Origin: Desulfobacteraceae bacterium
GTDB lineage: Bacteria > Desulfobacterota > Desulfobacteria > Desulfobacterales > Desulfobacteraceae
Length of the DNA: 64,000 bases
Assembly: GCA_016743945.1 (NCBI GenBank)
Contig: JADGFI010000001.1
Location: 147,891 to 211,890 of the forward strand
Direction of reading: 5' to 3'
In this document: piece after piece, positions 26,436 to 30,691 of the stretch
Layout of the letters: every line of letters starts with the position of its first letter
How positions within the stretch are numbered: the stretch's first letter is position 1
Made by a program: the position numbers and the translations under genes
The notes under the pieces: generated by a model
Database searches by the model: none
What the model was told of the DNA's origin: nothing
What the model saw: only the letters and a program-made list of their open reading frames with translations

Positions 26436-26645
26436 ATGAGCAAGAAAACAAATGAATACAACCCAATATTTTATTTGGTGATTAAAATGAAAAAAAAGAA
26501 ACAACGTATTAAAAACAGGGTACTTCGGGAAATTCTGAAAGAGATAGAGCAATCCCGAAAATGTAATTTCCCCCACTGGCGCAACTGGGGAAATTGGGGA
26601 AACTGGATCAATTGGAATAACTGGATGAACTGGGGCAACTGGTAA
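26436..26645 (+). CDS. putative RiPP precursor with seven Trp-X-Asn repeats
   Basis: A 69-residue peptide. Residues 1-46 form a Lys/Arg/Glu-rich leader (KKKKQRIKNRVLREILKEIE), and residues 48-69 are seven consecutive W-X-N triads (X = R, G, G, I, N, M, G) plus a terminal Trp. Radical-SAM enzymes of the three-residue cyclophane group crosslink an aromatic ring to the residue two positions on, commonly in WXN motifs, so this is a good substrate for the two radical-SAM proteins encoded directly downstream. There is no GG cleavage site. ATG 26436 and ATG 26487 are both possible starts; neither has a strong ribosome binding site. One Cys precedes the core. Confidence 0.8.
   Translation: MSKKTNEYNPIFYLVIKMKKKKQRIKNRVLREILKEIEQSRKCNFPHWRNWGNWGNWINWNNWMNWGNW
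26577..26642 (+). repeat. nine-base coding repeat encoding W-X-N triads
   Basis: Seven 9-bp units (TGG-NNN-AAY) plus a final TGG end immediately before the stop codon. The Trp and Asn codons are kept, with Asn written as both AAC and AAT, and Gly as both GGA and GGC. The middle codon changes the amino acid freely. This pattern indicates selection on the encoded W and N, not a simple DNA slippage array. Confidence 0.9.
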
Positions 26646-26681
26646 TTCCATGACAATTACTTTGCCAAGTATCTAAACCCA

Positions 26682-27899: not shown

Positions 27900-29013
27900 T
27901 CCGGCCCGAAAAATATCGGATCCAGAAAACCACCCGGATATATTCACCCTGATGCTGGAACCGGTAAAGGCCTGCAATATTAAATGCCTCTATTGCTATT
28001 CAGACCTGGCACACCAAACCATCATGTCCCATGAAATCCTGGCAGCAGCCATTCAGCAGGCCCTTTCCCATGTCAAGGAGAACCGTTTCAAGGCCCTGCA
28101 TATTATCTGGCATGGGGGGGAGCCCCTGCTGGCCGGGCTTGATTTCTTCCGAACCGCAGCTTCCATTCTTGACAGATATGAATCGGCAATCCCCATTACC
28201 CAGTTTATCCAGACAAATGGGCTTTTGCTGGATGAAGATTTCTGTCTGTTTTTCGGGGATCGGGACATTCAGCTGGGCATTAGTCTGGATGGCCCGGAAG
28301 AACTCCACAATGCCATGCGGAAAACACGGCACGGACAGGGCACCCATGATAAGGTGATGGATAAAATACTGCTTGTGGAAAATACGGGCTTGCCCTTTGG
28401 CCTGTGTATGGTTGTCACTCCTCTTTGCCAGGGCCGGGAAAAAGAGATTTATGGGTTCTTTAAAGGCCTGGGCAAACCCTTCAGGGCAAACCCTATGATC
28501 CCCCCCTTCCACCCGGCTTATAACGAAATAGGCAGGCTGAGACCCGGTGAATACGGTCGATTCATGTGCAAACTCTTTGATGAGTGGATACAAACAGAAA
28601 CCAACCGGATCCAGGTTTCTCCCTTGGACAGCTACCTTCTCAGTCTCACCAGGGGCAAATCCCCGGAGTGCCAGCAACAGCTTTCTTGTGTCGGCACCCA
28701 TATTAGCGTTCGGCCCGACGGATCCCTTGTTTTGTGCAGCCGGTTCCAGGACCATCGTCTTGGCCGGATACAAAAAAACTCTTTTAAACAAATCCATGAT
28801 GCCGGCCCAGGCTCTTCCCTTGCCCAAAGGGCGAACAACCTGACGTGCTGCCGAGCTTGCATCAGCCGGGAAATTTGTCATGGCGGATGTCCCCATAATG
28901 CCGCAGTTTTCTCAGGAGACCCAATGAAACAGGATCCCTTGTGCCAGGACTACCAAATGATCTACACCCATCTGCGCCGGGAACTTAACCGGGTAGCCCA
29001 TGATATTTTATAG
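27892..29013 (+). CDS. radical SAM/SPASM maturase 2
   Basis: A 373-residue protein with CX3CX2C at C28, C32 and C35, the WHGGEPLLAG motif near residue 74 and a canonical SPASM domain: C266, GX4C at C282, then C320-X2-C323-X5-C329-X3-C333 and C351. These ligands bind two auxiliary 4Fe-4S clusters in sactipeptide, cyclophane and related RiPP maturases. It shares overall design with the preceding enzyme, but the two sequences are well separated. The cluster therefore has two distinct maturases, acting either sequentially or as a complex. It overlaps the exporter gene by 14 bases. Confidence 0.88.
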   Translation: MNNPARKISDPENHPDIFTLMLEPVKACNIKCLYCYSDLAHQTIMSHEILAAAIQQALSHVKENRFKALHIIWHGGEPLLAGLDFFRTAASILDRYESAIPITQFIQTNGLLLDEDFCLFFGDRDIQLGISLDGPEELHNAMRKTRHGQGTHDKVMDKILLVENTGLPFGLCMVVTPLCQGREKEIYGFFKGLGKPFRANPMIPPFHPAYNEIGRLRPGEYGRFMCKLFDEWIQTETNRIQVSPLDSYLLSLTRGKSPECQQQLSCVGTHISVRPDGSLVLCSRFQDHRLGRIQKNSFKQIHDAGPGSSLAQRANNLTCCRACISREICHGGCPHNAAVFSGDPMKQDPLCQDYQMIYTHLRRELNRVAHDIL

Positions 29014-30691
29014 TTCTGACATAAAATATCTTATGGGGCTGACCTGCCAATACAAAAGGCAAATTCTCATCCTTCTGGTCATACAGATGGGATGTGCGGC
29101 CCTTTATTCTGTTCAACCCTTTTTTTTTCAGCGCATTGTCAGCCTTGTCATAACCGAATTTTCAGCTACCCTTTTTTTAAAAGGACTGGGCCCAATTGCT
29201 GCACTGGCCCTTACCTATGTCGCTCTTACCTTGCTCCAGGGGATTGGAGGCGCTGTTGCCTGCAAGTTTGCCTCGGATCTGCTCGACCAGCTCCAGACTG
29301 CTTTTTTTGAACAGCTTAACCGGTTGCCCCTGCAAGAGGTTCAACATCAGTCTGCCGGCGAATTCATGACCAAATTCAACACCGATATAAGCCAGACCCA
29401 GGCCCTGATTTCCCACCTGCTGCCCCGGGTCCTCAGGGAGACCGTGACAATCTTGGCGGTGATATCCATTCTCTTCTACGCCTGCCCCGCCACCCTGACC
29501 TTTTTGGCTGTTTTCATTGTCTTAATGACCGCCATTTTTATTGTTAAACTCAACCGGGTTCTGGAAAAATACGCCCGGGATCAGAGGTCAAAATGGGCGG
29601 ATATCAACCGGGTTCTGGACGAAACCGTACAGGGAATCGATACCCTTAAACTGTTTGCAGCAGAAAATGAGAGAAATCGATATTTTAGTAAAAAAACAGC
29701 CTCCTTACGCAGGCTCTCTGTAAAGTCCGGCACAATTGTCAGTATCTTCTCCCCCGTGATTGACCTGATCTCAAAATTTGGCGGTCTTTTACTCGTTCTA
29801 GCAGCCTATCTTATGATCGTAAACAACCAAATTATCATTGATGACTTCCTCTTGTTTTTTTTCTATGTGGGCCTGTTGGAAGCATCTGTATCTGCACTGA
29901 TCAACGCTCTTTCCAATATCCAGCCCCAGAGGGTCAGTGTTGACAATCTGTGTAATTTTTTCAACCGAATGCCTGAAGAGGTCAAAGATCCGGACAAGTC
30001 CAAGTCAATTGACGCCGCCCTCCCCATCAACATTACAGGTCTTGGGTTTGCCTATCCCCGGAGCCGGATGCTTTACTGCCATGCGGATCTTTTTATCCCA
30101 GCCAAGGCGATTACTGTCATCCACGGCCCCAGTGGCAGTGGCAAATCCACCCTGATCAATCTCCTTCTGCGATTTTATACGCCCGGGTCAGGCGAAATCC
30201 GGCTGGGCAAAGAGAATATCTGCAATTTTTCCCCTAGGGAATTGCGGAAAAAGATCAGTGTCGTCACCCAATTTCATTATATCTTCCATGAAACCCTCAA
30301 ACAAAACCTTACCATTGCCGCCCCCTGGTCAAGTGATCAGCAGGTAGAAAGTATCCTTGAAAAAGCCCGGCTTGGGGAATTGGTTCGCCGTCTGCCTGGC
30401 GGTATCCATGAAATACTGGATCCCCGGGGAAAAAATATCAGCGGCGGCGAAAGGCAGCGAATTTGTATGGCCAGACTTTTGTTAAAAAATACCCCCATCC
30501 TTATCCTGGATGAACCCTGGTCCAGCTTGGATGAGTCCTCAAAGGTACTCTTAATTGATATTATCAATCAACTCAAAGCCACTGCCACCATCCTTATTTT
30601 GACCCATGAACTGCCGGTTGCCCTGGATGCGGACCAAGTGTATCAGTTGAAACCAAACAAAGGAAGGTTTGAAGTTGTAAATCACGATTGA
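29000..30691 (+). CDS. ABC exporter (fused permease-ATPase)
   Basis: A 563-residue half-size ABC exporter: six membrane helices in residues 15-300, then an ATPase with Walker A GPSGSGKST, signature ISGGERQR and Walker B ILILDEP. It lacks the N-terminal C39 peptidase of bacteriocin exporters, so leader removal must be done by another protease, or the product keeps its leader. Position directly after the two maturases, with a 14-base overlap, indicates export of the modified peptide. The final 60 residues are short compared with MsbA-type proteins. Confidence 0.88.
   Translation: MIFYSSDIKYLMGLTCQYKRQILILLVIQMGCAALYSVQPFFFQRIVSLVITEFSATLFLKGLGPIAALALTYVALTLLQGIGGAVACKFASDLLDQLQTAFFEQLNRLPLQEVQHQSAGEFMTKFNTDISQTQALISHLLPRVLRETVTILAVISILFYACPATLTFLAVFIVLMTAIFIVKLNRVLEKYARDQRSKWADINRVLDETVQGIDTLKLFAAENERNRYFSKKTASLRRLSVKSGTIVSIFSPVIDLISKFGGLLLVLAAYLMIVNNQIIIDDFLLFFFYVGLLEASVSALINALSNIQPQRVSVDNLCNFFNRMPEEVKDPDKSKSIDAALPINITGLGFAYPRSRMLYCHADLFIPAKAITVIHGPSGSGKSTLINLLLRFYTPGSGEIRLGKENICNFSPRELRKKISVVTQFHYIFHETLKQNLTIAAPWSSDQQVESILEKARLGELVRRLPGGIHEILDPRGKNISGGERQRICMARLLLKNTPILILDEPWSSLDESSKVLLIDIINQLKATATILILTHELPVALDADQVYQLKPNKGRFEVVNHD

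What the first reader, a model, noticed from the sequence alone, without database searches (positions are those of the whole stretch)
26436..30691. RiPP gene cluster with a heptad of Trp-X-Asn triads, two radical SAM maturases and an ABC exporter
Seen directly: a 69-codon gene ends in seven perfect W-X-N triads plus Trp. It is followed without gaps by two radical SAM/SPASM genes (overlap 8 bases) and an ABC exporter (overlap 14 bases). Established: radical SAM enzymes of the three-residue-cyclophane (triceptide) group join an aromatic ring to the residue two positions later, and WXN is a preferred motif (XyeB, GrrM and FxsB-type families). Inference: the product is a poly-cyclophane peptide with up to seven consecutive Trp-Asn crosslinks. 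An uninterrupted array of this length, reaching the C-terminus, is unlike the two or three spaced motifs I know from described precursors.
Basis: partly seen in the sequence, partly recalled or inferred. Interest (0 to 1): 0.95.

Follow-up and report, generated by a model that had tools for sequence, protein, structure and literature searches.

The report
Tandem Trp-X-Asn ring-forming peptide gene cluster
A bacterium of the same family as Desulfospira carries a short peptide gene ending in seven back-to-back Trp-X-Asn units, followed by two radical SAM enzyme genes that would likely stitch each unit into a small ring and an exporter gene that would likely ship the product out; relatives of the whole set exist, and no published description of this peptide family turned up in the open-access searches made here.

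Summary
In detail: window 26436-26645 encodes a peptide ending in (WXN)x7-W, followed by two radical SAM/SPASM genes and an ABC exporter. It is a conserved family. All 8 genomes found with a close relative of the first maturase have a WXN-array precursor directly upstream; in 395 phylum genomes, searching by maturase or by array finds the same 5 genomes. A precursor profile gives 340 relatives; of the 120 listed, 62 have an uninterrupted run of 7-9 triads, and 820 of 871 core Asn have Trp two residues before, while X takes 17 residue types. The 7 precursors scanned match no NCBIfam or Pfam family above cut-off, and the window's maturases stay far below the cut-offs of their 25 best NCBIfam models. 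Best reading: a new triceptide-like family predicted to make rod-like poly-cyclophane peptides; the crosslinks are inferred. Second finding: in 3 of 3 loci of the window's family, an nSTAND1-TPR gene lies immediately upstream on the same strand, behind a TIR (or TIR and SIR2) gene. That module also occurs without the peptide, and resembles published FxSxx peptide-STAND-TIR coupling. A second family has a small periplasmic-protein-like gene there instead.

The parts
26487..26645 (+). Precursor peptide, likely true start (52 aa); the longest ORF begins at 26436. Leader includes KNRVLREILKEIEQSRKCNFPH, core (WXN)x7-W
26436..26645 (+). Precursor as the longest ORF (69 codons)
26577..26642 (+). Core array: seven W-X-N triads plus terminal Trp
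   Evidence: only place in the own genome
26682..27899 (+). rSAM1, radical SAM enzyme with SPASM-like Cys set of unusual spacing (C331-x2-C334-x9-C344-x2-C347...C384)
   Evidence: Radical_SAM above Pfam cut-off; 21-sequence alignment; AF2 model pLDDT 89.4, nearest solved folds anSMEcpe and ChlB
27892..29013 (+). rSAM2, radical SAM/SPASM enzyme, canonical CX2CX5CX3C...C
   Evidence: 33% identical to rSAM1
29000..30691 (+). ABC exporter (ABC_membrane + ABC_tran); no peptidase domain found by Pfam
   Evidence: 45.6-49.1% identical to the five other cluster exporters compared
23783..26407 (+). nSTAND1 NTPase with C-terminal TPRs; ends 28 bases before the precursor ORF (79 before ATG 26487)
   Evidence: same position in 3 of 3 loci of this family
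22477..23814 (+). TIR-domain protein upstream of the STAND gene
   Evidence: TIR_2 E 6e-18; TIR gene also in L132 and L163
21922..22395 (+). 157-aa gene of unknown family; 63% identical copy at the same place in Desulfospira; also found beside TIR genes with STAND or AAA genes elsewhere

Best explanation
This is a RiPP gene cluster whose precursor ends in seven contiguous Trp-X-Asn triads and which is predicted to make an exported poly-cyclophane peptide, a rod in which radical SAM enzymes likely join each Trp ring to the Asn two residues later. Shown: the array, the two paralogous radical SAM genes, the exporter, and their conservation as a unit. Inferred: the conserved leader (KNxVLREILEEI) is recognised by the maturases; one or both install a C-C bond from the Trp indole to the Asn beta-carbon in each triad (minus 2 Da each, up to minus 14 Da here); and the MsbA-like ABC exporter moves the product across the inner membrane. 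Leader removal is by an unknown protease, since no peptidase domain was found in the three cluster exporters scanned and no peptidase gene was recognised next to the genes. In the window's own family the cluster is probably co-transcribed with a TIR/nSTAND1-TPR conflict module, so the peptide likely acts as a toxin or signal controlled by, or feeding, that module.
Confidence: 0.75

Rival explanations
1. RiPP cluster as described, but the radical SAM enzymes install something other than Trp-Asn C-C rings (for example epimerisation, other C-X bonds, or i to i+3 links), or the two enzymes do different chemistry on different triads.
For: Two paralogous enzymes with different SPASM spacing are present in 7 of 7 loci that reach that far; best NCBIfam hits are DynA and anSME, not XyeB or GrrM; W-W-T or W-W-N ends and the widespread FP[FYH]W suggest a further site.
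Against: Aromatic-X-Asn is the motif of known three-residue cyclophanes (PMC11002830 and PMC9062424 passages), and the three-residue register with free X fits i to i+2 rings best.
Confidence: 0.2
2. The peptide is an antibacterial or signal of its own, and the TIR/STAND genes are only chance neighbours from a defence island.
For: The second family (f36) has the RiPP cluster, with no TIR/STAND seen and a Metal_resist/Spy-like gene in that place in 5 of 5 loci; the TIR module also lives without the peptide in 3 of 3 other places looked at.
Against: nSTAND1-TPR is the gene directly before the precursor in 3 of 3 loci of this family, same strand, spaced 28 bases, 45 bases and minus 4 bases, although effectors differ (TIR; TIR and SIR2_2, with EAD11). 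Published FxSxx radical SAM peptides are coupled to STAND/TIR systems (PMC7159879 passages).
Confidence: 0.4
3. The W-X-N reading is an off-frame reading of a collagen-like or other DNA repeat, not a real peptide.
For: The 3-triad DNA pattern hits at least 120 stretches of viral contigs, in which many W-X-N runs lie in short open stretches, probably off-frame Gly-X-Y repeats (frames not tested). A 75-codon ORF is open on the other strand.
Against: A leader outside the repeat and the W-X-N frame are conserved across the 120 listed proteins, next to the same maturase in 8 of 8 loci read.
Confidence: 0.02
4. The maturases are anaerobic sulfatase maturases and the peptide is unrelated to them.
For: TIGR03942 and anSMEcpe are among the best matches.
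Against: Scores 174.9 and 236 bits against a cut-off of 349.45; co-occurrence with the array both ways in the 395 phylum genomes.
Confidence: 0.03

Closest known systems
Triceptides / three-residue cyclophane-forming enzymes (XncB/XyeB, OscB/GrrM, MscB/FxsB, YxdB, HaaB, YhhB)
   Same: Radical SAM/SPASM maturase beside a short precursor with aromatic-X-Asn motifs; XncB and OscB link Trp C6 or C7 to Asn C-beta at i+2 (PMC11002830 passages). The pairing of enzyme names with NCBIfam families is partly recalled
   Different: Two paralogous maturases; 5-10 triads in 114 of 120 precursors, often contiguous; XyeB, GrrM/OscB, FxsB and YhhB cut-offs not reached; the 7 precursors scanned match no Pfam or NCBIfam family above cut-off
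ChlB, multiple cyclophane synthase (PDB 9gm3, 9gmc)
   Same: Second-closest solved protein by fold (rSAM1) and by sequence (both); solved with the leader region of its precursor substrate
   Different: 21-22% identity; described as fused to a HEXXH hydroxylase domain (PMC12636437 passages), not found in the window's enzymes
Dynobactin maturase DynA / anaerobic sulfatase maturases
   Same: Best NCBIfam models for both enzymes; anSMEcpe closest fold of rSAM1
   Different: 175.1 and 244.6 bits against DynA cut-off 450; 174.9 and 236 against TIGR03942 cut-off 349.45
His-Xaa-Ser (HxsB/HxsC) systems
   Same: Paired radical SAM enzymes and triad motifs (HxsB/HxsC and His-Xaa-Ser named in PMC9062424; tandem HXS repeats recalled, from no call)
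   Different: W-X-N, not H-X-S; HxsB score 68.6 and 78.5 bits against cut-off 370
TvgA/TvgB repeat peptide
   Same: Radical SAM enzyme modifying units of a repeated motif (PMC9062424 passages)
   Different: Makes cyclopropylglycine in TVGG repeats
FxSxx peptide-processing units of NTP-dependent conflict systems
   Same: Radical SAM/SPASM-modified peptide next to STAND-type ATPase and TIR genes (PMC7159879 passages)
   Different: There in actinobacterial VMAP systems, with AP-ATPase and a metallopeptidase; here nSTAND1-TPR, two maturases, an exporter, and no metallopeptidase recognised

Membership tests
Triceptide (three-residue cyclophane RiPP) | Radical SAM core with CX3CX2C | tested here: met
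   C16/C20/C23 invariant in 21 rSAM1; C28/C32/C35 invariant in 7 rSAM2; Radical_SAM Pfam above cut-off for both
Triceptide (three-residue cyclophane RiPP) | SPASM auxiliary cluster domain | tested here: met
   rSAM2 SPASM 23.5 bits vs 21.5 and canonical CX2CX5CX3C. rSAM1 of the window has no Pfam SPASM hit but 7 invariant Cys with unusual spacing, and a relative's copy passes at 25.4 bits. Clear for rSAM2, indirect for rSAM1
Triceptide (three-residue cyclophane RiPP) | Precursor with aromatic-X-X motif conserved, middle residue free | tested here: met
   820 of 871 core Asn have Trp at i-2; 17 residue types at X
Triceptide (three-residue cyclophane RiPP) | C(sp2)-C(sp3) bond from aromatic ring to beta-carbon at i+2 | not testable with these tools
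   needs mass spectrometry and NMR
XyeB / GrrM-OscB / FxsB / YhhB / AmcB curated families | Score above NCBIfam cut-off | tested here: not met
   rSAM1/rSAM2 bits: XyeB 63.5/73.2 vs 450; GrrM 118.8/121.5 vs 310; FxsB 70.1/98.4 vs 370; YhhB 106.5/136.2 vs 445; AmcB 103.8/125.7 vs 425
DynA | Score above NCBIfam cut-off | tested here: not met
   175.1/244.6 vs 450
Anaerobic sulfatase maturase | Score above NCBIfam cut-off (TIGR03942) | tested here: not met
   174.9/236 vs 349.45
His-Xaa-Ser system | HxsB score above cut-off | tested here: not met
   68.6/78.5 vs 370
His-Xaa-Ser system | H-X-S triads in the precursor | tested here: not met
   triads are W-X-N
TIR/STAND conflict system (upstream module) | STAND NTPase with repeats plus TIR effector gene in one run of genes | tested here: met
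   nSTAND1 287 bits, TPRs, TIR_2 66 bits; same in L132 and L163
TIR/STAND conflict system (upstream module) | Match to a described anti-phage system in PADLOC | tested here: inconclusive
   only weak single-protein matches, E 8e-8 to 4e-4, none for the 157- and 190-aa proteins
TIR/STAND conflict system (upstream module) | Anti-phage or NADase activity | not testable with these tools
   needs experiment

The most novel reading that the evidence does not exclude
The exported, fully ring-linked Trp-Asn rod is the peptide arm of a TIR/SIR2-STAND immune-like system in this bacterial family: a new class of poly-cyclophane peptide, with up to nine consecutive three-residue rings in relatives, that is made as a toxin or alarm signal and is sensed or released under control of the nSTAND1-TPR protein encoded immediately upstream.
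Probability: 0.3. Interest if true: 0.88.

Novelty: new variant of a known kind. Interest (0 to 1): 0.74.

Why it matters
It would also offer a test of whether a radical SAM enzyme runs along an array (processivity) and of what a second maturase is for. The recurring link to TIR/SIR2-STAND genes makes it testable whether a cyclophane peptide takes part in bacterial immunity, as proposed for the FxSxx peptides.

Tried and rejected
rSAM1 in viral contigs: 10 weak relatives (20-31% identity, and 45% over a 33-residue piece), not followed. Genome-contig scan, whose two peptide patterns were narrow: only Desulfospira joergensenii is close; two others are at 23-28% (L134 has no array by the motif scan; L135 was not examined). 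Weak rSAM1 hits G043 and G046 (29%) have no array in the stretches read. Plasmids: 47 records, all under 60% identity, the 10 listed 25-29%; the 5 of these 10 with an annotated gene call it anaerobic sulfatase maturase. AF2 model of rSAM2 from two sequences had pLDDT 39 and was not used. PADLOC gave only weak single hits. Paper searches (listings and starts of abstracts) showed no description of a WXN-array precursor family; the library lacks most subscription journals, and Sugiyama 2022 and Nguyen 2020 were seen only as references and in passages of a review, so earlier mention there is not excluded. [quoted passage not shown]); their precursor sequences were not seen, so an overlap is possible.
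Full report
What is there. The ORF 26436-26645 (+) ends in seven perfect W-X-N triads and a last Trp; rSAM1 (26682-27899), rSAM2 (27892-29013) and an ABC exporter (29000-30691) follow with overlaps of 8 and 14 bases, after a 36-base gap behind the precursor. The likelier start is ATG 26487, giving 52 residues: it leaves 30 residues before the first triad, against 47 from 26436 and a median of 34 (range 26-62) in the 120 listed relatives. 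In 200,000 shuffles of the core the longest run was 6 triads, once. The DNA pattern for three triads occurs only here in the own genome, and the reversed control does not occur. AAC and AAT are both used for Asn and the X codons differ, so selection acts on the peptide, not on a DNA repeat.

It is a family. A first search found one relative, P0001, with (WXN)6 and the same leader. Genome searches with rSAM1 or its relatives covered 58 relatives, 395 genomes of the phylum, 29 of the order of G407, 389 of the own order and 86 of the own family; these sets overlap. Together they give 8 genomes with a close rSAM1 (E<=1e-60): G000, G014, G754 in the window's family and G245, G331, G371, G407, G449 in a second family (f36). 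All 8 have a WXN-array peptide of 7-9 triads directly upstream on the same strand. rSAM2 and exporter follow in 7 of 7 where the contig continues (G449 ends before); in G371 the exporter is cut by the contig end. The reverse test starts from the array: (WXN)4W in the 395 genomes of the phylum hits 5 genomes, the same 5 as the rSAM1 search; the reversed control pattern has 2 hits, both in one other genome, G405. Most genomes searched lack the cluster: 3 of 86 in the own family have it, and none of the 5 other genomes held of the window's genus.

Precursor statistics. A profile of 7 precursors finds 340 proteins at E<=1 (4857 candidates); the 120 best, all at E<=5e-11, were listed and analysed. 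The longest uninterrupted run is 1-6 triads in 58 and 7-9 in 62; 114 have 5-10 triads in all. Of 1044 core Trp, 820 have Asn at i+2, 98 are too near the end, 76 have T (mostly the WWT end), 17 W, 12 R, 10 D, 8 G, 1 L (these add to 1042; the script printed only the eight commonest). Of 871 core Asn, 820 have Trp at i-2. X is G, R, H, L, N, S, F, M, Y, A, W, Q, T, V, I, rarely E or C; no Asp, Lys or Pro. 73 of 120 end in WWT, and 113 have FP[FYH] right before the first triad. Interrupted arrays (HH, GRRH, YW and similar) exist, so contiguity is typical but not strict. No NCBIfam or Pfam family above its cut-off matches the 7 precursors scanned.

Mechanism. From established knowledge of triceptides (PMC11002830, passages) the aromatic-X-Asn motif is a site of ring formation by XncB and OscB. 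The three-residue register with a free middle residue fits one ring per triad. I therefore infer a poly-cyclophane rod, exported by the MsbA-like transporter. Pfam found no peptidase domain in the window's exporter or in the two other cluster exporters scanned, and no peptidase gene was recognised next to the genes, so leader removal is unexplained.

Surroundings. In the window a 157-aa gene, a TIR gene and an nSTAND1-TPR gene precede the precursor on the same strand. Desulfospira has the same three genes in the same order (the 157-aa protein is 63% identical, STAND 28%; the two TIR proteins gave no BLAST match to each other at E<=1e-3). G754 has EAD11-TIR, SIR2_2-EAD11 and nSTAND1-TPR, the last overlapping the precursor by 4 bases, and lacks the 157-aa gene. 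So 3 of 3 loci of this family have an nSTAND1-TPR gene immediately before the precursor while the effectors differ. The 157-aa gene occurs in 5 of 86 family genomes. In the 3 without the cluster it lies beside TIR genes with AAA and FGE-sulfatase-domain genes (G020; in G731 only TIR and AAA were scanned) or with a TIR-SIR2_2 protein and nSTAND1 (G003), and no array lies in the stretches fetched. The conflict module thus exists without the peptide. Kaur et al. 2020 (PMC7159879, passages) describe FxSxx peptides with radical SAM/SPASM enzymes coupled to AP-ATPase/TIR genes and suggest the peptide is a toxin or signal; the arrangement here looks like a parallel case. In the second family a small gene with an apparent signal peptide, resembling Metal_resist/Spy-type proteins but below the Pfam cut-off (3 of 5 copies scanned), takes that place in 5 of 5 loci, which would fit a product acting in the cell envelope.

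Literature. Ten searches show no paper describing this array family; coverage is limited to open-licence papers. PMC9062424 (section 4 and passages read) reports networks with Aro-Xaa-Asn motifs, which might include relatives.

On recount these were mended: the number of WWT ends (73, not 72), the leader lengths, the PADLOC E-value range, the ChlB identity and the reach of the NCBIfam statement; the control hits in G405 and the 5wgg match were added.

Noticed in passing
window 21922-22395; L132 17457-18029; L194; L195; L196: A 157-190 aa family without Pfam match above cut-off (two members scanned) recurs beside TIR genes with STAND, or with AAA and FGE-sulfatase-domain genes; probably an unnamed component of conflict systems.
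   Followed up: partly
L163 13074-15068: G754 carries SIR2_2-EAD11 and EAD11-TIR genes before the STAND gene: paired, likely NAD-targeting effectors sharing an adaptor domain.
   Followed up: partly
L151-L155: In the second family a small gene with apparent signal peptide, Metal_resist/Spy-like below the Pfam cut-off, precedes the precursor in 5 of 5 loci.
   Followed up: partly
rSAM1, window 26682-27899: Invariant Cys with CX2C-x9-CX2C in place of the usual SPASM CX2C-x5-C-x3-C spacing.
   Followed up: partly
window 26424-26651 (-): An open 75-codon frame opposite the precursor reads as Pro-X-X-rich; no evidence that it is a gene.
   Followed up: no
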